Under the pieces are notes generated by a model, which had not been told where the DNA came from, did no database searches, and saw only the letters and a program-made list of their open reading frames with translations. A stretch of DNA of 64,000 bases from Paeniglutamicibacter sulfureus. GTDB taxonomy: Bacteria > Actinomycetota > Actinomycetes > Actinomycetales > Micrococcaceae. The position numbers were made by a program, and so were the translations under genes. Positions 15,259-63,655 of this stretch are shown piece by piece (within the stretch, counting starts at the first letter, position 1; each line of letters starts with the position of its first letter). The stretch is taken from assembly GCF_039535115.1 (NCBI RefSeq), contig NZ_BAAAWO010000001.1, forward strand, positions 1,054,001 to 1,118,000, written 5' to 3'.

Positions 15259-16623
15259 ATGAAACCCCGAGGCAAGACCCTCACCGGTGCCTTGGCCGCT
15301 GCCGCGGCCCTGGCACTGACGCTCTCAGCCTGCACGCCGGGCTCCGAGGCCCCCACGTCCTCTGCCCCGCTCACCAGTGCCCCCGTGGAAACGGACGTCT
15401 CAAAGATGGGCGAGCAGACGCTCACCGTCTGGGACCAGGAGGTCCGCGGCGGGCAGAACGAGCAGATGACCAAGCTCAATGCCGCCTTCGAGGACAAGTA
15501 TCCGAACGTGACCATCGAGCGCAACTCCCAGTCCTTCGAGGACCTGGGCAAGACCCTGCGCCTGGCGCTGTCCGGCAACGACGCCCCCGACGTGGTCCAG
15601 GCCAACAACGGCCGCAACACCATGGGCTCCTTCGTCAAGGCCGGGCAGCTGCTGCCACTCGATGCGTGGGCGCAGGCCTACGGCTGGACCGAACGCTTCC
15701 CCGCCTCCGTGCTGAAGTACTCGCAGTACTCCACGGACGGCACCACGTTCGGATCCGGCTCGGTCTACGGGCTGCCGCAGGTCGGCGAGGTGGTCGGCGT
15801 CTTCTACTCGAAGAAGAAGCTTCAATCCCTGGGCCTGGACGTCCCGTCCGACTGGGCCGGGTTCGAGTCCGCCACCGCCACCGCCAAGGACAAGGGCGAG
15901 ACCCCGCTGCTGCTGGGCAACATCGAGAAGTGGCCCGCGGGCCACGTCTTCGGCCCCCTCCAGGGTGCCAAGGCGCCTGCGGAGGACATCGAGAAGCTTG
16001 GTTTTGGCAACGCCGGTTCCACCTGGAACACCCCGGAGAACGAGGCCGCGGCGGCCGAACTGGCCGACTGGAACGCCAAGGGCTACTTCAACGAGGGCGT
16101 CAACGGCACCGAATACGATGCCGCCTGGCAGAACCTGGCCAAGGGCGAGGGCGTGTTCCTGATGGGAGGCTCCTGGATGGCCGCGGACCTGGCCGACGCC
16201 ATGGGCGAGGACGTTGGGTTCTTCGCCCCGCCGGCAACCGCCGGGACCGGCGCGCACACCACCGGCGGCACCGGGCTGCCCTTCACCGTGACCTCCAAGA
16301 CCGAAAACCCGGATCTGGCCGCCGCCTACATCGACTTCATCACCAACGACGAGGCGATGGCAGTGTTGGCCGACACCGGGAACCTGCCGGTCATCAACAC
16401 CCAGAAGTATGCCCCTGCCTCCGGCGTGCTCAAGGACGTTTACACGGAGTTCGAGACCGTCACCACCAAGGGCGCCCTGCTGCCGTACCTGGACTACGCG
16501 ACCCCGTCCATGGGAGACACCCTCGGCGACTCGCTGCAGGGCCTGCTGGCCGGCAAGCTCGATGCTAAGGCGTTCACCGACGCCATGGAAGCTGACTATG
16601 CCGGCTTCACCCAAGGCAAGTGA
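15259..16623 (+). CDS. ABC sugar importer, lipoprotein substrate-binding protein
   Basis: A 454-residue family-1 extracellular solute-binding protein. The signal peptide ends in the lipobox LSAC, with Cys25 predicted to be lipid-modified, so the protein is anchored on the outer face of the membrane. The mature part has the periplasmic-binding fold with VVQANNGRNTMGSFVKAG and VFLMGGSWMA segments typical of disaccharide/oligosaccharide binders. The ATG at 15259 has AAAGGA just upstream. Its 3' end overlaps the first permease gene by 26 bases, so the importer genes are one operon. Confidence 0.93.
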   Translation: MKPRGKTLTGALAAAAALALTLSACTPGSEAPTSSAPLTSAPVETDVSKMGEQTLTVWDQEVRGGQNEQMTKLNAAFEDKYPNVTIERNSQSFEDLGKTLRLALSGNDAPDVVQANNGRNTMGSFVKAGQLLPLDAWAQAYGWTERFPASVLKYSQYSTDGTTFGSGSVYGLPQVGEVVGVFYSKKKLQSLGLDVPSDWAGFESATATAKDKGETPLLLGNIEKWPAGHVFGPLQGAKAPAEDIEKLGFGNAGSTWNTPENEAAAAELADWNAKGYFNEGVNGTEYDAAWQNLAKGEGVFLMGGSWMAADLADAMGEDVGFFAPPATAGTGAHTTGGTGLPFTVTSKTENPDLAAAYIDFITNDEAMAVLADTGNLPVINTQKYAPASGVLKDVYTEFETVTTKGALLPYLDYATPSMGDTLGDSLQGLLAGKLDAKAFTDAMEADYAGFTQGK

Positions 16624-39226: not shown

Positions 39227-39313
39227 TCGACGTTACCTCCGGCCGATGGACGCCCGGCCAGGTTTGGCGTAAGGGTCCCGTAAAGATTCGTGGCCGTCGG
39301 GCATAATGGGTGG

Positions 39314-40786
39314 ATGATCCGCGGCAGAAGCATCGGGAAGGCGGGTCCCGCCGCCTCCGGGCAGGACCCGATGCGCACCTTGTCGGGTTATCTTCTAGCG
39401 CTTGTCCTGCCGGCGGCAATGACCTTCCTGCTCTCTCCGTTCGACGAGTTGAACCTGGCCACCCATGCCCTGGCACGGCTGTGCTCGGTGATAGTCGTGG
39501 CTTTTCTCGGAGGCCTGGGGCCGGCAGTGCTGGCGGCGGTGCTGGACGCCTTGTTCCTGAACTATTTCGTGACCCATCCGGTGGGAACCTTGACTGTCAA
39601 CGACCCCCAGGACTTTTTCGTCTTGTTGGTCTATCTGGGGGTCGGGATTACCGTGGCCCTGGTCGTGGGGCTCTCCGCCCGCCGGTCCCGGGCAGCAGCC
39701 CTCTCCAGCGCCGAGGCAGCCACGCTGAGCGAGTTGGCCCGCACCTCCCTGGCGGGCGACCAAAGTTCGGAGGAGTTCCTCGACCAGTTGCGCGGGCAGT
39801 TCCAGCTCAACGGGGTCAGCGTCTTCGAAGGCGTTGATGACGGCTTGTGGCGGCTGCGTGCCTCGTCAGGTCCGGACGCGCCGCAGTGTCCGGACGCCGC
39901 CACCACCCTTGACCGACCTCGTCCCGGGTTGGCAGTCGGGCTGAACCAATCGGCGCCGACCGGCGGTGATCGGCGCCTGCTAAACGCCTATGAGGCACAT
40001 CTTGCGGCGTTGTTGGAGCGTGAGCGGCTCATCCTTCGGCTACGCGATTCGATCAAGCTCATCGAAGGAAACCGGGTCAAGACCTCGATCCTGCGGGCCG
40101 TTTCCCATGACCTGCGAACCCCTCTGGCCGGTATCGAACTCGCCCTGACCGCGCTGCGCCGTCAGCGGTCCAAGACCAGCGTGGAGCAGCAGGAAGAGAT
40201 GCTGGACGCGGTTCAGAGCTTCACCGACCGCCTCAAGGGGCTCGTGGGGAACCTATTGGACATGTCGCGGCTTTCCAGCGACAGCGTCCAGGTGCTGCAC
40301 GAACCCGTCACGTGGCTCGAAGTTGTTCCCGAAGCGCTTGCCGGGGTGCCGGACGGGGCCGTGCGTGCGGAACTGGCCCCCAACTTGCCACCGGTGGACG
40401 CGGATCGCGGGTTGCTTGAGCGGGCATTGGCCAACCTCGTGGAAAACGCCGTGAAGTATGCGTCCGGGACCGATATTGTGGTGCGCGCCACGGCCGGCGG
40501 CAGTCTGCATGTCTGGCCTGACGGCCGTCCCTTTGGTGAACTGCGCGTCGTGGACCATGGCGACGGCGTGCCCGCGGACCGGGTCGTGGCAATGTTCCAG
40601 CCTTTTCAGCGACTCGACGACGCGTCCCCCGATGCAGGCATCGGCCTTGGACTGGCGGTGGCCAAGGGCTTTATCGAGGCCATGGAGGGTCAACTCGTGG
40701 CCGAGCCAACGCCCGGGGGCGGCCTCACCATGTCCATCAGGTTGCCGCTTTACACCGGGATGGCAACGTTCAAGGACGACGAATGA
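39314..40786 (+). CDS. KdpD-like sensor histidine kinase lacking the KdpD/USP N-terminal domains
   Basis: A 490-residue membrane histidine kinase. Residues 20-115 form the four-helix DUF4118 module typical of KdpD (GYLLALVLPAAMTFLLSP, then VAFLGGLGPAVLAAVLDALF). A GAF-like linker (about 130-230) is followed by the H-box ILRAVSHDLRTPLAGIELAL and a HATPase with LVENAVKYA and GIGLGLAVAKGFIEAM. Full KdpD is about 850-900 residues; the KdpD and universal-stress-protein domains that bind c-di-AMP are absent. The ATG at 39314 lies 6 nt after CATAAT. The response regulator gene overlaps by 4 bases. Confidence 0.88.
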   Translation: MIRGRSIGKAGPAASGQDPMRTLSGYLLALVLPAAMTFLLSPFDELNLATHALARLCSVIVVAFLGGLGPAVLAAVLDALFLNYFVTHPVGTLTVNDPQDFFVLLVYLGVGITVALVVGLSARRSRAAALSSAEAATLSELARTSLAGDQSSEEFLDQLRGQFQLNGVSVFEGVDDGLWRLRASSGPDAPQCPDAATTLDRPRPGLAVGLNQSAPTGGDRRLLNAYEAHLAALLERERLILRLRDSIKLIEGNRVKTSILRAVSHDLRTPLAGIELALTALRRQRSKTSVEQQEEMLDAVQSFTDRLKGLVGNLLDMSRLSSDSVQVLHEPVTWLEVVPEALAGVPDGAVRAELAPNLPPVDADRGLLERALANLVENAVKYASGTDIVVRATAGGSLHVWPDGRPFGELRVVDHGDGVPADRVVAMFQPFQRLDDASPDAGIGLGLAVAKGFIEAMEGQLVAEPTPGGGLTMSIRLPLYTGMATFKDDE

Positions 40787-50322: not shown

Positions 50323-50383
50323 TTGACATTCACGGAGACCCCGGTCACACTAGATCGTATACGATTTCATACACAACAGGAGG
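50323..50383 (+). promoter_or_regulatory. hpa operon promoter with GntR-type operator
   Basis: TTGACA (50323-50328) with a 17-base spacer to CACACT (50346-50351). The perfect 12-base palindrome ATCGTATACGAT (50354-50365) lies over the expected transcription start, and AGGAGG (50378-50383) follows. The palindrome has the GTATAC core typical of FadR/VanR-type GntR operators, and a GntR gene is second in the operon. Confidence 0.7.
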
Positions 50384-50388
50384 AAACC

Positions 50389-51894
50389 GTGAGCAGCGAC
50401 GCTACAGCCACCGAATTGGTCGAGGTCGACCAGTCCATCTTTGACAGGGCCGGCAAGGTCCTTGCGGTCCACCTCTCCTACTCCTCGAGGGCAGCCCAGC
50501 GCGGCCGCACCCCTGCTTTCCCGTCGTATTTCATGAAGGCGCCTTCCTCGCTGGCCAGCACGGGCTCCACCGTTGAGCGCCCGGCAGGCACCGAACTGCT
50601 TGCCTTCGAGGGCGAAATCGCCTTGGTCATCGGCACCGACGCCCGCCGCGTTACCGTCGAGCAGGCTTGGGGCCACGTCGGATACGTGACGGCCTCAAAC
50701 GACCTGGGCGTCTACGACATGAAGTACGCCGACAAGGGTTCGAACATCCGCTCCAAGTCCGGCGACGGCTACACCCCGATGGGCCCGGTGCTGCTCCCGG
50801 CGGCCTCCCTCAACCCCGACGCCCTGCGCATCCGCACCTGGGTCAACGGCGAGATCGCCCAGGACGCCACCACGCAGGAACTGATCTTCTCCTTCGCGCA
50901 GATCGTCGCGGACCTCTCCCAGCAGATGACGCTGAAGGCCGGAGACGTGATCCTCACCGGGACCCCGGCCGGATCTTCCGTGATCGTGCCGGGCGACGTG
51001 GTCGAGGTGCAGGTCGACGACGAGGCAGCGGGCCTGTCCACCGGACGCCTGGCCACCACCGTGGTGGAAGGCACCGAAACCTTTGCGGCCTTCGGCAACC
51101 AGCCCAAGATCACCGACGCGGACCGCATCGACGCCTTCGGCACCGCCGCCGACGCAGGCATCGAGACCCCGATCACCGGCAAGGCCGCATTGACCGACGA
51201 GGTCAAGGCCAAGCTCATGTCCGTGGCCACCGCGACGATCTCCGGCGCCCTGCGCAAGCGCGGACTGAACAACGTCTCGGTCGACGGACTGCAGGCCACC
51301 AAGGGCATGACGAAGGTCATCGGCACCGCCCGCACGCTGCGCTACGTGCCCAACCGCGAGGATCTCTTCAAGACCCACGGCGGCGGCTACAATGCCCAGA
51401 AGCGCGTCATCGACGACATCGGCCCGGGCGAGATCCTGGTCATGGAGGCCCGCGGAGAAAAGGGCTCCGGCACCCTGGGCGACATCTTGGCGATGCGCAC
51501 CCAGGTGCGCGGCGCCGAGGCCATCATCACCGACGGCGGGGTCCGCGACCTCGACGCCGTTGCCGCCCTGGACATCCCGACGTTCCACAACGGCGCGCAC
51601 CCTGCGGTCCTCGGGCGCAAGCACGTGCCGTGGGACACCGACGTGGCCGTGGGCTGCGGAGGCACCACCATCGTCCCCGGGGACATCGTCATCGCCGACG
51701 CCGACGGCATCCTGGTCATCCCGCCGCACCTGGCCGCCGAGATCGCCGAGGAGGTCGTCGAGTCCGAACGCCAGGACACCTTCGTGTTCAAGCACGTGTC
51801 CAACGGCGCCGAGATCAAGGGCCTGTTCCCGATGAACGCCGACTGGAAGGCCAAGTACAACCAGTGGGTCGCCGACGGCGAACCGGAATTCTAG
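50389..51894 (+). CDS. hpaG: FAH-domain isomerase/decarboxylase fused to an RraA-like domain (HpaG-type)
   Basis: A 501-residue fusion. Residues 20-240 are a fumarylacetoacetate-hydrolase fold (GEIALVIGTDARRVTVEQAW, YVTASNDLGVYDMKYADK, KAGDVILTGTPAG), as in HpaG/HpcE, which decarboxylates 5-oxopent-3-ene-1,2,5-tricarboxylate and isomerises the product. Residues 265-470 are an RraA-like domain (GTLGDILAMRTQVRGAEAII, then DGGVRD), with the D-X20-R-D metal motif intact. E. coli HpcE has two FAH halves; here only one is present. AGGAGG and GTG at 50389 define the start. It is the first gene of the hpa operon. Confidence 0.88.
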   Translation: MSSDATATELVEVDQSIFDRAGKVLAVHLSYSSRAAQRGRTPAFPSYFMKAPSSLASTGSTVERPAGTELLAFEGEIALVIGTDARRVTVEQAWGHVGYVTASNDLGVYDMKYADKGSNIRSKSGDGYTPMGPVLLPAASLNPDALRIRTWVNGEIAQDATTQELIFSFAQIVADLSQQMTLKAGDVILTGTPAGSSVIVPGDVVEVQVDDEAAGLSTGRLATTVVEGTETFAAFGNQPKITDADRIDAFGTAADAGIETPITGKAALTDEVKAKLMSVATATISGALRKRGLNNVSVDGLQATKGMTKVIGTARTLRYVPNREDLFKTHGGGYNAQKRVIDDIGPGEILVMEARGEKGSGTLGDILAMRTQVRGAEAIITDGGVRDLDAVAALDIPTFHNGAHPAVLGRKHVPWDTDVAVGCGGTTIVPGDIVIADADGILVIPPHLAAEIAEEVVESERQDTFVFKHVSNGAEIKGLFPMNADWKAKYNQWVADGEPEF

Positions 51895-52619: not shown

Positions 52620-54125
52620 ATGAGCAAGCACTTCGTTCCCGAGAACCTTCCGACCCACCTGCAGCACTACATCGGCGGCCAGTTCGTCGATTCCATCGGC
52701 GGGGAAACCTTCGAGGTCCTGGACCCCGTGACCAACCAGACCTACGCCACCGCGGCCGCCGGCCAGAAGGCCGACATCGATGCAGCCGTCGCCGCCGCCA
52801 CCGAGGCGTTCAAGAACGGCCCGTGGCCGACGATGAGCGCCCGGGCCCGCGCCAAGGTCCTCTACAAGATCGCCGACGCCGTCGTCGCCCAGGAAGACCG
52901 CCTGGCCGAGATGGAAACCTTCGACACCGGCCTGCCGATCACCCAGGCCCGGGGCCAGGCGCAGCGCGCCGCGGAGAACTTCCGCTTCTTCGCCGACCTG
53001 ATCGTCGCCCAGCACGATACCGCGCTGAAGGTCCCCGGATCGCAGCTGAACTATGTGAACCGCAAGCCGATCGGCGTCGCCGGCCTGATCACCCCGTGGA
53101 ACACCCCGTTCATGCTTGAGTCCTGGAAGCTCGCCCCCTCGATCGCCTCCGGTTGCACCGTGGTACTCAAGCCGGCCGAGTTCACCCCGCTCTCCGCCTC
53201 GCTGTGGGCCACCATCTTCAAGGAAGCCGGCCTCCCGGACGGCGTGTTCAACCTGGTCAACGGCATCGGCGAGGAAGCAGGCGACGCACTGGTCAAGCAC
53301 CCGCGCGTTCCGCTGATCTCCTTCACCGGCGAGTCCTCCACCGGCCAACTGATCTTCCGCAACTGCGCCGAAAACCTCAAGGGCATGTCCATGGAGCTGG
53401 GCGGCAAGTCCCCCGCCATCGTCTTCGCCGACGCGGACTTCGACGCCGCCATCGACTCGACCCTCTTCGGCGTGTTCTCGCTGAACGGCGAGCGCTGCAC
53501 CGCCGGTTCCCGCATCCTGGTCGAACGTCCGATCTACGAGAAGTTCGTCGAGGCCTATGCCGCCCGCGCCAAGAACATCAAGGTCGGCGACCCGCACGAT
53601 CCCGAAACTCAGGTCGGCGCGCTGGTCCACCCGGAACACTACGACAAGGTCATGAGCTACGTGGAAATCGGCAAGTCCGAGGGCCGCGTCGTGGCCGGCG
53701 GCGGACGCCCGGAAAACCTGCCCGAGGGCCAGGAAAACGGCTCCTACGTCGCCCCGACCGTGTTCGCCGACGTGGCACCAGATGCCCGCATCTTCCAGGA
53801 AGAGATCTTCGGACCCGTCGTGGCAATCACCCCCTTCGACACCGACGAAGAGGCCCTGGAACTGGCCAACAACACCCGGTACGGCCTGGCCGCCTACATC
53901 TGGACCAACGACCTCAAGCGCTCGCACAACTTCGCGCAGAACGTCGAGGCCGGCATGGTCTGGCTCAACAGCCACAACGTGCGTGACCTGCGCTCCCCCT
54001 TCGGCGGCGTGAAGGCCTCGGGCCTGGGCCACGAGGGCGGCTACCGCTCGATCGATTTCTACACCGACCAGCAGGCGGTGCACATCACCCTCGGTGAGGT
54101 CCACACCCCCAAGTTCGGCGCCTAA
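52620..54125 (+). CDS. hpaE: 5-Carboxymethyl-2-hydroxymuconate semialdehyde dehydrogenase
   Basis: A 501-residue NAD-dependent aldehyde dehydrogenase. Cofactor and catalytic motifs are visible: ITPWNTPFMLESWKLAPSIA, FTGESSTGQLIF, the general-base Glu in SMELGGKSPAIVF and the nucleophile Cys in FSLNGERCTAGSRI. The closest family by eye and by neighbours (ring-cleavage dioxygenase hpaD next) is HpaE, which oxidises the dioxygenase product. AAGGAG precedes the ATG at 52620. It is fully in frame and of normal length. Confidence 0.93.
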   Translation: MSKHFVPENLPTHLQHYIGGQFVDSIGGETFEVLDPVTNQTYATAAAGQKADIDAAVAAATEAFKNGPWPTMSARARAKVLYKIADAVVAQEDRLAEMETFDTGLPITQARGQAQRAAENFRFFADLIVAQHDTALKVPGSQLNYVNRKPIGVAGLITPWNTPFMLESWKLAPSIASGCTVVLKPAEFTPLSASLWATIFKEAGLPDGVFNLVNGIGEEAGDALVKHPRVPLISFTGESSTGQLIFRNCAENLKGMSMELGGKSPAIVFADADFDAAIDSTLFGVFSLNGERCTAGSRILVERPIYEKFVEAYAARAKNIKVGDPHDPETQVGALVHPEHYDKVMSYVEIGKSEGRVVAGGGRPENLPEGQENGSYVAPTVFADVAPDARIFQEEIFGPVVAITPFDTDEEALELANNTRYGLAAYIWTNDLKRSHNFAQNVEAGMVWLNSHNVRDLRSPFGGVKASGLGHEGGYRSIDFYTDQQAVHITLGEVHTPKFGA

Positions 54126-54175: not shown

Positions 54176-55273
54176 ATGTCCAACGTCATCCCCAAGCCCT
54201 CCGTCCCGGCTCCCGATATCCTGCGCTGCGCGTACATGGAGATCGTGGTCACCGATTTGGCCAAGTCCCGTGCCTTCTACGTGGACCTGCTCGGCCTGCA
54301 CGTGTCCTACGAGGACGACAAGCAGATCTACCTGCGTTCCTTCGAGGAGTTCATCCACCACAACCTGGTGCTGACCCTCGGCCCGATTGCCGCGGTTGCC
54401 GCATTCTCCTACCGCGTGCGCTCCAACGCCGACGTTGACGCCGCCGAGGCGTACTACAAGGAACTGGGCTGCCGCACCGAGCGCCGCACCGAAGGCTTCG
54501 TGCGCGGCATCGGCGACTCCGTGCGCGTCGAGGATCCGTTGGGCTTCCCCTACGAGTTCTTCTTCGAGACCGAGCATGTCGAACGCCTGCACATGCGCTA
54601 CGACCTCTACTCGGCCGGCGAATTGGTCCGCCTTGACCACTTCAACCAGGTCACCCCGGATGTCCCGCGGGGACGCAAATACCTCGAGGACCTGGGCTTC
54701 CGCGTCACCGAGGACATCCAGGACGACCAGGGCGTCACCTACGCCGCCTGGATGCACCGCAAGGGCACCGTGCACGACACCGCCCTGACCGGCGGCGACG
54801 GCCCGCGCATGCACCACGTTGCCTTCTCCACCCACGAGAAGCACAACATCATCCAGATCTGCGACAAGATGGGCGCGCTGCGCATGTCCGACCGCATCGA
54901 GCGGGGCCCGGGACGCCACGGCGTCTCCAACGCGTTCTACCTCTACATCCTGGATCCCGATGACCACCGCATCGAGATCTACACCCAGGACTACTACACC
55001 GGCGACCCGGACAACCCGGTCATCACCTGGGACGTGCACGACAACCAGCGCCGCGACTGGTGGGGCAACCCCGTTGTCCCGTCCTGGTACACCGAGGCCT
55101 CCCTGGTCCTGGACCTGGACGGCAAGCCGCAGGACGTCATCCAGCGCACCCACTCCTCGGAGATGGAGGTGACCGTCGGCGCCGACGGCTTCTCCTACAC
55201 GCGTGCACCGGGCGACGCACTGACCGGCGATCCGGGCGAGGAAGTGGGCTTCAAGATGGGCCACCAGCTCTAG
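54176..55273 (+). CDS. hpaD: Homoprotocatechuate 2,3-dioxygenase (MndD/HPCD type)
   Basis: A 365-residue extradiol ring-cleavage dioxygenase of the vicinal-oxygen-chelate superfamily. The metal ligands fall at His155 (LDHFNQVTPD), His214 (RMHHVAF) and Glu267 (DHRIEIYT), and second-sphere His200 and Tyr257 are also present. These positions match the studied enzymes of Arthrobacter globiformis (Mn) and Brevibacterium fuscum (Fe). It opens 3,4-dihydroxyphenylacetate to the semialdehyde handled by HpaE. Whether it uses Mn or Fe cannot be told from sequence. It is the last gene of the plus-strand hpa block. Confidence 0.95.
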   Translation: MSNVIPKPSVPAPDILRCAYMEIVVTDLAKSRAFYVDLLGLHVSYEDDKQIYLRSFEEFIHHNLVLTLGPIAAVAAFSYRVRSNADVDAAEAYYKELGCRTERRTEGFVRGIGDSVRVEDPLGFPYEFFFETEHVERLHMRYDLYSAGELVRLDHFNQVTPDVPRGRKYLEDLGFRVTEDIQDDQGVTYAAWMHRKGTVHDTALTGGDGPRMHHVAFSTHEKHNIIQICDKMGALRMSDRIERGPGRHGVSNAFYLYILDPDDHRIEIYTQDYYTGDPDNPVITWDVHDNQRRDWWGNPVVPSWYTEASLVLDLDGKPQDVIQRTHSSEMEVTVGADGFSYTRAPGDALTGDPGEEVGFKMGHQL

Positions 55274-60613: not shown

Positions 60614-61984
60614 CTAGGCTTCCTGGCTTCGGTGCTTGGCATCGTGTGCCGCCTGCAGCTCCGGGTCGATGTCCTCGACGTGCAGGTTGCGGCCCTTGGT
60701 CTCGCCCACCCAGATGACTGCCGCCATCGAAATAAGGGTGAGCACCATAATGTAGATGGCAATCGAGCCGGACCAGCCGGTCCTCTGAAGAAGGATCTCG
60801 GCGACGGTCGATGCAAAGGCACCGCCGAGGATCGCGCCGAGAGCGTAGCCGATCGAGATGCCCGAGTAGCGGATGTGTGCCGGGAACATTTCGGCGTACA
60901 TGGCCGACTGCGGGCCATAGGACAGCCCCAGGCCGACCGTCAGGATGAAGATCGAAACACCGTAGAGGAAGACGCTTCGGGTCTCGATCAAAAGGAACAT
61001 CGGGATCATCCAGACGAAGACGATGCCGTAGCCGATCAGGAAGGTGTTGCGGCGTCCCAAGTGGTCGGAGAGCCAGCCACCGACCAGGGTGAAGATCAGC
61101 CAGCCGACGGAGCCGATGGTGGTGGCCAGGAGCACCGGTGCCGTCGGCATCTCCAGCACCCGGGTGGTGTAGGCGATGAAGAAGGCGATGACCAGGTAGC
61201 CGGCGGCGTTGTTGGCGATGAAGATCAAGGCTGCCTGGATGACTTCCTTGGTGTTGGTCTGGAAGAGCTGCTTCAGCGGGGTGTGCTCCGAGGCCTTGCG
61301 CAGTGCGAGCTGCTTGAAGATCGGGGATTCCTCGACGGCCTTTCGGATCAGGTAGCCAACGACGATCAACACCACAGAGAGCAGGAACGGCACGCGCCAG
61401 CCCCAGGCGGCAAACTGTTCCGGGCTCATGGACGTGCGCAGCAGGTACAGCATGCCCGTGGCAATGATCATGCCGATCGGGACACCGATCTGCGGGAAGG
61501 CGCCGAAGAAGCCGCGCTTGTTGTTCGGGGCGTGCTCCACAGCCATCAATGCCGCGCCGCCCCATTCGCCGCCGGCGGAGAAACCCTGGATGATGCGCAG
61601 GAGCACCAGCAGGATCGGAGCCCACAGGCCGATGGTGGCGTAGGTGGGCAGGAGGCCGATCAGCGCGGTGGCCGCGCCCATCAGGATCAGGGTGGCGACC
61701 AGCACGCGCTTGCGTCCGTACTTGTCACCCAGGTGGCCTGCCACAATAGCGCCCAGCGGACGGAAGAGGAAGGAAATGCCGATCATTGCGAAGGCGAGGA
61801 TCTGCCCCAGGCCCGGGTTGGACACGCTCAACGGCTGCAGGAAGAGCGGCGTCAGCAAGGTCGCGGTGAGCTGGGCAAAGATGAAGAAGTCGTACCACTC
61901 AATGGTGGTGCCAACCAATGTGCCGGCAAGGACACGACGTTCCTCGGAACGTTTGCTGCTTGCCGCGAGGGATGAGGAAGCCAT
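60614..61984 (-). CDS. MHS-family MFS transporter (probable aromatic acid importer)
   Basis: A 456-residue 12-helix transporter of the metabolite:H+ symporter family. The start TLVGTTIEWYDFFIFAQLTA and the loop GHLGDKYGRKRVLVATLI (motif A) are characteristic, as is QGFSAGGEWGGAALMAVEHA. The position beside hpaB/hpaC suggests import of 4-hydroxyphenylacetate or a related acid; homologues also carry shikimate, citrate or betaine. AGGAG precedes the ATG. A TetR-type operator lies in its promoter. Confidence 0.92.
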   Translation of the reverse strand: MASSSLAASSKRSEERRVLAGTLVGTTIEWYDFFIFAQLTATLLTPLFLQPLSVSNPGLGQILAFAMIGISFLFRPLGAIVAGHLGDKYGRKRVLVATLILMGAATALIGLLPTYATIGLWAPILLVLLRIIQGFSAGGEWGGAALMAVEHAPNNKRGFFGAFPQIGVPIGMIIATGMLYLLRTSMSPEQFAAWGWRVPFLLSVVLIVVGYLIRKAVEESPIFKQLALRKASEHTPLKQLFQTNTKEVIQAALIFIANNAAGYLVIAFFIAYTTRVLEMPTAPVLLATTIGSVGWLIFTLVGGWLSDHLGRRNTFLIGYGIVFVWMIPMFLLIETRSVFLYGVSIFILTVGLGLSYGPQSAMYAEMFPAHIRYSGISIGYALGAILGGAFASTVAEILLQRTGWSGSIAIYIMVLTLISMAAVIWVGETKGRNLHVEDIDPELQAAHDAKHRSQEA

Positions 61985-62031: not shown

Positions 62032-62055
62032 ATCATACCGACCGTTCGGACGGTA
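62032..62055 (-). promoter_or_regulatory. MHS-gene promoter with TetR-type operator
   Basis: On the minus strand, TATGAT (62037-62032) is a good -10. Just upstream lies the 20-base near-palindrome TACCG-a-CCG-tt-CGG-a-CGGTA (62036-62055), the form of many TetR-family sites. No TetR gene is present in the window. Confidence 0.55.
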
Positions 62056-62202
62056 AAGTGCTTTGTCCATGGTAACCCATCATCGTGACTCCGCTCACGT
62101 CAATTTGGGTCTCGGCTGTTCCTCCCCTTGCGCGGGGAATGTCCGGCGCCGGATGCGCCGGCAATCCGGCGTCTTGGGCGAAGGCGTTTCCGCGGTGGTT
62201 CC

Positions 62203-63655
62203 TCAATCCTCCCGGCCCAGGAATTCGCGCACTCGCAGGCACATCGGCTCGCGGTCGTAGCTGTTCACCATGGCTCCGGCCATGCGCACGGGATCGCCGA
62301 AAAAAAAAGTATTCATAGAGTGCCTGGCGACCGGAGAATCCGGTGATCGAGGCGTCGTAGGCGAGCTTGAACAGCCGGATCCGCTCGGACCCCGTCAGGG
62401 ACTTGCCCTGCAGGTATTTGGCGATATCCTCGGTCGCAACCTCCAGGTCCGCTTCGCCGGGCAGCGCCATGAGGCCCGAAGCGCAGAACTTCCGGATGAT
62501 CTCCGGGAAGCGCTGGGAGATCTTCGGATACCAGTTGCGGGCGGCATTCAGCGTTTCCCAATGCGGCAACAGCACCCCGTCAACGCTGGGGGCCGCCTGC
62601 GCCTCGGCCGCGACCACCAGCGCCTTGCCGATCTCCACGTTGCGGATCAACTCCGCCAGGTCCTCCTGGATATGCGCAAAGCCGTCGATGCCAATGGCTC
62701 CGGCGATCTCCGAGGCCAGCCCCAGGTAGAACTCGGACTTGGCGACGGTGCGGGTGACGACCTGGTGCGTCATCAACGCGCCGGCTCCGGTGTCGGTATA
62801 CCAGGCGTTGCAGAGTTCCGGGCGCCCGAGCATGAAGATGCGCTCATTGGGGATGAACACCTCGTCGAACACCACCACCGCGTCGATCTCGTCGAAGCGG
62901 GCTGCCAGCGGCTCGTCATGCGTGTTGCCGCCGTTGTGCAGCCCGGTGCGGCAGAGGTAGCGCAACCCGGGCGCGTCGTTGGCCACGGCCACGGCAAAGG
63001 AATAGGGAGCGTCCTCGGGGGTGCCGCGCAGCACGGTGGAGGGAAAAACCAGCAGCTCGTCGGCGATCGGGGCGACGGTGGCGAGCATCCGGGCACCGCT
63101 GATGACAATGCCGTCTGCCCGTTCCTCGACAATGCGCGCGGTGAGCTGGCCGCCGAGCTGCTCGGAGCCGGAGACCGAACGGTTGACTTGGGGTGGGATC
63201 AGGGTGTGCGTGGCCAAGAGGTCGTTCTCGCGGGCGAATTCGTAGTAGGCCTCGATGCGCTCCCCGAAGACCGGGTCGCCCTGTGCAAAGAACGTCTTGG
63301 CGGTGGACAGGGCGGTGAGGGCGGCGTTCATGTAGTCGGCGGTCCGGCCCAGGAAGCCGTTGGAATACTCGGACCAGGTGGCTGTCGCCGCCCGCCGCCG
63401 GGCCAGGTCCTGCGGCGTGCGCGGCACCAGGAAAGAGGCATTGACCAGGTCCCCGGTGGTGGGCGATTCGTAGGTCAGCGCGTCCCGGTGGGCCGGGTCG
63501 TGTTGCATGTCAAAGAGTTTCGCGTAAGTGAGCGCCAGCTGCCTGAAGGCCGGGTGCCGGGTGAGGTTTTCGGAGACCACCTCCCCGTCGATGACCAGGT
63601 GCGGACGCATCGCGTCCAGCTTGGCCAGGAACTGCGCCCCGGTTCTGATTCCCAT
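62203..63655 (-). pseudogene. hpaB: 4-Hydroxyphenylacetate 3-monooxygenase oxygenase, frame broken at a run of nine A
   Basis: FADH2-dependent oxygenase that hydroxylates 4-hydroxyphenylacetate. From the ATG at 63655 (AGGGG upstream) the frame gives the family segments RPHLVIDGEVVSENLTRHPA, YESPTTGDLVNASFLVPRTP, THTLIPPQVNRSV and YGKAL-like helices up to LYEYFFF. There, nine A on the plus strand (62300-62308, nine T in the gene) shift the frame. With eight, the protein would continue GDPVRMAGAMVNSYDREPMC to a stop at 62203-62205, 483 residues, the normal HpaB length and C-terminus. As written it reads 57 foreign residues beyond and stops at 62033. This is a real mutation, a slippage site or a sequencing error. 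hpaC lies 49 bases upstream. Confidence 0.82.

What the first reader, a model, noticed from the sequence alone, without database searches (positions are those of the whole stretch)
62203..63655. hpaB is out of frame at a nine-base homopolymer
The HpaB reading frame is intact for about 450 residues, then nine T in the coding strand (nine A at 62300-62308) shift it. Removing one T restores the conserved end (YFFFGDPVRMAG...) and a stop at 62203, giving the normal 483 residues. The run is encoded as Phe-Phe-Phe using TTT codons, although this genome nearly always uses TTC. A long slippery run kept in a high-GC gene could be transcriptional slippage or phase variation; it could also be a recent loss of function or a read error.
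Basis: partly seen in the sequence, partly recalled or inferred. Interest (0 to 1): 0.8.

Follow-up and report, generated by a model that had tools for sequence, protein, structure and literature searches.

The report
Slipped thymine run breaks catabolic gene
This bacterium carries one thymine too many in a gene for breaking down an aromatic acid, and a sister strain is broken at the same spot in the other direction, so the gene is probably switched off in both by an ordinary kind of copying slip.

Summary
In a Paeniglutamicibacter very close to P. sulfureus, hpaB (4-hydroxyphenylacetate 3-monooxygenase) reads in frame for 449 codons plus Phe-Phe-Phe. Nine T (nine A at 62300-62308) then shift the frame; the conserved last 31 residues lie one base off and stop at 62203. 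New evidence: the sister strain As4PL (about 98% identical here) has seven T at the same place and is out of frame the other way. The six genus members with an unbroken gene have short, interrupted Phe codons there. The gene still looks under purifying selection (pN/pS 0.11 against 0.135 nearby), with no amino-acid change assigned to this strain's own branch. The genome has NucS and no MutS_I hit; NucS in M. smegmatis does not repair 1-2 base indels. Best reading: a young thymine run whose length changed, giving recent off alleles of a dispensable gene; the other pathway genes found are open. True phase variation, rescue by transcriptional slippage, and assembly error stay open, because no reads or RNA could be examined. 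Known mechanism, new instance, moderate interest. Public deep reads of a cave isolate related to As4PL could test it.

The parts
62309..63655 (-). hpaB, in-frame part: first 449 codons of 4-hydroxyphenylacetate 3-monooxygenase, oxygenase component (HpaB-1)
   Evidence: TIGR02309 486.4 bits, cut-off 480.2; Pfam HpaB_N and HpaB
62300..62308 (-). T9 run over the codons of Phe450-452, site of the frame break; T7 in As4PL
62203..62299 (-). conserved hpaB tail, one base out of frame with the rest
   Evidence: translation; identical DNA in As4PL; conservation
62033..62299 (-). out-of-frame extension of the literal 540-residue product
   Evidence: not shared with As4PL, whose product ends at 462 residues
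63705..64000 (-). hpaC-like flavin reductase upstream of hpaB (179 aa, continues beyond the window to 64244)
   Evidence: fragment hits NF042921 HpaC_Thermus at 53 bits, below its cut-off of 200
60614..61984 (-). metabolite/H+ symporter-like transporter downstream of hpaB, open
   Evidence: TIGR00883 391.9 bits, cut-off 443.45
52620..54125 (+). hpaE, open
   Evidence: TIGR02299 673.1 bits, cut-off 638.35
54176..55273 (+). hpaD, open
   Evidence: TIGR02295 446 bits, cut-off 321.4
50323..51894 (+). fumarylacetoacetate hydrolase/RraA fusion, HpaG-like, open
   Evidence: NF009399 798.4 bits, cut-off 444; HpaG-C-term 136.7, below its cut-off of 276.4

Best explanation
A recent loss-of-function allele of hpaB made by a length change in a young thymine run. 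The invariant Phe-Phe (and Phe/Tyr before it) forces a T-rich site. In the P. sulfureus lineage the C that interrupts it in relatives was lost, by C-to-T change (which would give a run of eight) or by deletion. Replication then changed the length: nine T here, seven in As4PL (exactly the P. quisquiliarum sequence minus one C). With NucS and no MutS_I hit, small loops in such a run are expected to escape repair. The products have wrong tails (540 and 462 residues instead of 483) and lack the conserved GDPVRMA stretch, so the first step of 4-hydroxyphenylacetate breakdown is probably off while the other pathway genes found are open. Shown: both lengths, the frames, open neighbours, low protein divergence, NucS present and MutS_I not found. 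Inferred: slippage as the cause, loss of activity, recency.
For: As4PL T7, out of frame the other way. Interrupted in-frame sites in the six genus members with an open gene. 12 synonymous and 4 nonsynonymous differences, pN/pS 0.11 against 0.135 over 43 neighbouring ORFs; on this strain's branch 3 synonymous, 0 nonsynonymous. Gene dispensable in the genus: 6 of 14 genomes lack an orthologue and G004 has a multiply broken one. NucS 140.6 bits, no MutS_I hit; NucS does not repair 1-2 base indels in M. smegmatis (PMC11551767, passages). Open hpaC, hpaE, hpaD, HpaG-like, hpaH and hpaI-like genes.
Against: No reads seen, so either length could be an assembly error. Two of two genomes off could also mean a shared older loss: both carry Cys472 in the tail where 93 of 120 homologues have Arg and 27 Gln, though they also share an unusual Ala225 before the break. 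A near-identical intact protein exists (P0001), so an on state occurs in or near the species. Enzyme inactivity was not tested.
Confidence: 0.6

Rival explanations
1. Phase variation: the run is a contingency switch like the glpK run of M. tuberculosis, flipping a catabolic gene on (eight T) and off (seven or nine T), each state useful in turn.
For: Length differs between strains in both directions; gene otherwise conserved; NucS without a MutS_I hit; a homopolymer switch in a catabolic gene is described in another actinobacterium (PMC11898584, passages); an intact close relative exists as protein (P0001).
Against: No eight-T allele was seen in DNA; the run is absent from related species; As4PL also carries Thr296Arg where 120 of 120 homologues have Thr, so one base might not restore it; As4PL's seven T can come from one C deletion without any run of eight.
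Confidence: 0.13
2. Assembly or sequencing error: the true run is eight T in one or both strains.
For: Homopolymers are common error sites; the two lengths straddle eight; As4PL's assembly holds artefact-like blocks of poly-G, poly-C and poly-A; three or four other mid-ORF frame differences occur between the two assemblies in 284 kb; the sequencing method of this genome is unknown to me.
Against: Errors would have to hit the same site in two assemblies; of four other runs of eight that could be compared, one is eight in both and none shows a pure length change; the genome is 99.99% complete as one contig.
Confidence: 0.17
3. Rescue by transcriptional slippage: RNA polymerase slips on the run, so part of the mRNA has eight U and some full-length HpaB is made despite nine T.
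For: T runs longer than eight are listed as slippage sites (PMC3711429, passages). In Blochmannia frameshifted genes with poly-A/T runs showed no unusual rates, and earlier work cited there found 30% full-length transcripts (PMC3017870, passages). Purifying selection here. Run deletions in Buchnera RNA also rise with run length (PMC5574713, passages).
Against: Nine T needs a one-base deletion in RNA, while run slippage in E. coli and Buchnera gave mainly insertions and no case restored a frame (PMC5574713, passages). As4PL's seven T is below the stated length. The run is not conserved, so it is not programmed.
Confidence: 0.1

Closest known systems
glpK seven-base G run of Mycobacterium tuberculosis (phase variation; PMC11898584, passages)
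   Same: Catabolic gene of an actinobacterium; frame-breaking indels in a coding homopolymer; NucS-type repair thought to leave such indels.
   Different: T run instead of G; no in-frame allele, reversibility or selection shown here; two genomes against thousands of isolates.
Frameshifted poly-A/T genes of Blochmannia and Buchnera (PMC3017870, passages)
   Same: One indel in an A/T run of an otherwise conserved gene, possible correction in RNA.
   Different: GC-rich free-living host where the run is unique in the genome; other genus members lack the gene altogether; As4PL differs in direction.
HpaB-1, two-component 4-hydroxyphenylacetate 3-monooxygenase (TIGR02309; solved relatives 9lft, 2yyg)
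   Same: First 452 residues match the family and score over its cut-off; both solved relatives also carry FFGDPVRM.
   Different: The literal product lacks the last 30 profile positions (447 of 477).

Membership tests
HpaB-1 (TIGR02309) | Score over the family cut-off | tested here: met
   486.4 (449 aa) and 495.2 bits (540 aa), cut-off 480.2
HpaB-1 (TIGR02309) | Full-length conserved C-terminal end in frame | tested here: not met
   profile matched to 447 of 477; intact P0001 reaches 476
Phase-variable contingency locus | Repeat tract in the reading frame whose length differs between strains | tested here: met
   T9 against T7; two genomes only, from assemblies
Phase-variable contingency locus | In-frame and out-of-frame alleles both present in the species | tested here: inconclusive
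   intact protein P0001, 99% identical, but its DNA and species are not known
Phase-variable contingency locus | Reversible switching within a population | not testable with these tools
   no reads or cultures
Programmed transcriptional slippage | Run and frame relation conserved across relatives | tested here: not met
   longest T run at this site: As4PL 7, one locus 6, the other 65 of 67 loci at most 5
Programmed transcriptional slippage | Mixed RNA lengths giving a functional product | not testable with these tools
   no RNA data
Pseudogene | Frame-breaking mutation removing a conserved part | tested here: met
Pseudogene | Further decay beyond the frame break | tested here: not met
   0 nonsynonymous changes assigned to this strain's branch in 449 codons; As4PL has 4, one at an invariant site

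The most novel reading that the evidence does not exclude
hpaB of P. sulfureus is a natural on/off switch for aromatic-acid catabolism in a non-pathogenic actinobacterium: the thymine run toggles between seven, eight and nine, unrepaired because NucS ignores small loops, so a population holds a minority able to use 4-hydroxyphenylacetate while the rest save the cost.
Probability: 0.13. Interest if true: 0.6.

Novelty: new member of a known kind. Interest (0 to 1): 0.33.

Why it matters
One site has changed length in two directions within a species, in a gene whose protein sequence forces T-rich codons, in a lineage whose repair type is thought not to correct small indels. If switching is real, indel-blind NucS repair would give contingency loci to free-living actinobacteria as well as to tubercle bacilli, and the test is cheap: plate on one carbon source and sequence the run. 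If it is plain loss, it is a clean early record of a catabolic gene dying at its longest run.

Tried and rejected
Structure: AlphaFold2 models of P0001 and of the 540-residue product had mean pLDDT 55.8 and 57.9, low from about residue 391 on in both; not used, and no fold search was run. A functional out-of-frame extension: rejected, because As4PL does not share it and stops at 462 residues. A second hpaB covering for this one: the only other match in the genome to the 449 residues is 34% identical (G000:C1:2198299-2199624), probably of the dehydratase/isomerase group (recalled); other types of hydroxylase were not searched. Papers holding both '4-hydroxyphenylacetate 3-monooxygenase' and 'frameshift': three, listing and abstract starts only, none about this by title. 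'Arthrobacter' + '4-hydroxyphenylacetate' + 'phase variation': none. 'NucS' + 'homopolymer' + 'slippage' + 'Streptomyces': none. 'As4PL': one paper, read from the title into its reference list, part 1 of 2.

Full report
What is there. The minus strand from 63655 encodes HpaB-1: the first 449 codons score 486.4 bits on TIGR02309, cut-off 480.2, and match both HpaB Pfam families. Codons 450-452 are a pure T9 run (62308 down to 62300). The frame then leaves the family and ends at 62033 as a 540-residue protein, while the conserved tail continues one base off to a stop at 62203. The literal product matches the family profile to position 447 of 477; an intact protein 99% identical, P0001 (an ENA contig of 5,644 bases, cluster of 17 sequences), reaches 476 and 538.3 bits.

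Where it is. The best named match is Paeniglutamicibacter sulfureus As4PL (L003): 99% identical over the 449 residues, 99.4% over 6.7 kb of DNA, and 1,539 mismatches in 83,595 aligned columns, about 98.2%. The window's genome is one contig of 4,573,525 bases, 99.99% complete.

The key result. As4PL has seven T at the same place, so it is out of frame in the opposite direction and stops at 462 residues. Of 68 loci from genome contigs, 67 could be read at this site: As4PL has seven T, one locus has six and 65 have five or fewer. Among the six genus genomes with an open gene, P. quisquiliarum (G008) and Arthrobacter sp. C2 (G003) read TTTTTCTTC, and four (G002, G007, G010, G011) read TTCTTCTTC. 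As4PL's seven T equal the P. quisquiliarum sequence minus one C, so that allele need not have passed through eight T. The state of the common ancestor is unknown.

How special the break is. Of the 68 loci, 61 are open to the end by my criterion, one (L045) is cut by a contig end, and six are broken (L003, L055, L057, L064, L067, L070); the last five break elsewhere. Of 14 genomes of the genus, eight keep the orthologue (six open; this one and G004 broken, G004 in several places) and six do not (three without any match, three with only distant matches of 35% identity or less). In 284 kb, 173 of 175 coding-like ORFs of this genome aligned to As4PL. Comparing in both directions, hpaB and three or four other ORFs have uncompensated frame differences well inside; several more lie close to mechanically chosen starts and probably precede the true start. 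None of the others is at an A/T run; one is by a run of eight C. So the background of breaks, or of assembly errors, is low but not zero.

The run itself. It is the only A/T run of nine or more in the genome; six others reach eight. Four of the six aligned to As4PL: one is eight in both, two differ by a substituted base, one has an extra C in As4PL. Two gave no counterpart, one in the single 20 kb stretch I fetched, one in a whole-genome search that has no positive control. Phe is TTT in 75 of 529 cases in 43 ORFs.

Age. Over 449 codons the strains differ by 12 synonymous and 4 nonsynonymous changes, pN/pS 0.11, against 0.135 pooled over 43 neighbouring ORFs. Polarised on P. quisquiliarum, this strain has 3 synonymous and 0 nonsynonymous, As4PL 6 and 4, with 3 synonymous unresolved. 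One As4PL change, Thr296Arg, falls where all 120 listed homologues (the best 120 of 1,254) have Thr. So this strain's allele looks young; As4PL's may be older or doubly damaged. Against recency, both share Cys472 in the tail, where 93 of 120 homologues have Arg and 27 Gln; but they also share Ala225 before the break, which none of the 120 has, so this argument is weak.

Mechanism. The genome has NucS_C at 140.6 bits (7 of 14 control genomes ring) and no MutS_I hit (11 of 14 controls ring); MutL was not searched. In M. smegmatis NucS does not repair 1-2 base indels, and the authors link this to phase variation at homopolymers (PMC11551767, passages). Replication slippage left uncorrected is the simplest cause; it is inferred.

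Consequence. Other pathway genes found are open: an hpaC-like reductase (179 residues, 100% identical in As4PL), hpaE and hpaD over their cut-offs, an HpaG-like fusion below the HpaG cut-offs, hpaH over its cut-off (361.3 bits, cut-off 351.5) next to an hpaI-like gene below its own (330.1, cut-off 368.8) near 3.95 Mb. HpaF was not searched. Loss of HpaB would block 4-hydroxyphenylacetate and spare 3,4-dihydroxyphenylacetate (established pathway knowledge). That losing the tail kills activity is inferred: residues 453-459 are the same in all 120 homologues apart from one Val/Ile, and solved relatives keep FFGDPVRM.

Alternatives. Phase variation of the glpK kind (PMC11898584, passages) needs an on allele and reversibility, neither seen in DNA. 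Transcriptional slippage is possible at T9 (PMC3711429 and PMC3017870, passages), but a deletion is needed, and slippage in runs gave mainly insertions with no frame restored, although deletions in runs also rose with length in Buchnera (PMC5574713, passages). Error cannot be excluded without reads; As4PL's assembly has artefact-like homopolymer blocks elsewhere.

Verdict. A real observation with an ordinary mechanism, unusually clear because two strains are broken at one site in opposite directions. Deep public reads of related cave isolates (PMC12160454) are the quickest test.

Noticed in passing
window 16564-16569; As4PL stretch L114: As4PL has about 1.67 kb extra here, flanked by a repeated GCTAAG and encoding a 464-residue protein that looks like an IS1380-type transposase (name recalled); this strain has the empty site.
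   Followed up: partly
window 39867, ORF 39290-40786: As4PL carries 18 extra bases, an in-frame partial repeat of GTCCGGACGCG, inside this ORF.
   Followed up: no
G000:C1:1255052-1256596 (minus strand): A 514-residue ORF here lacks two bases in As4PL (GAAGAGGT against GAAGGT) and is shorter there: another mid-gene frame difference between the strains.
   Followed up: no
L070 and L082 (Arthrobacter sp. AQ5-05, G004): hpaB is broken in several places in this genus member, a far more decayed copy than the one in the window.
   Followed up: partly
L145 1-400 and L146 (As4PL contig C1 start and near 1034400): Blocks of poly-G, poly-C and poly-A that look like assembly artefacts inside a public genome.
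   Followed up: partly
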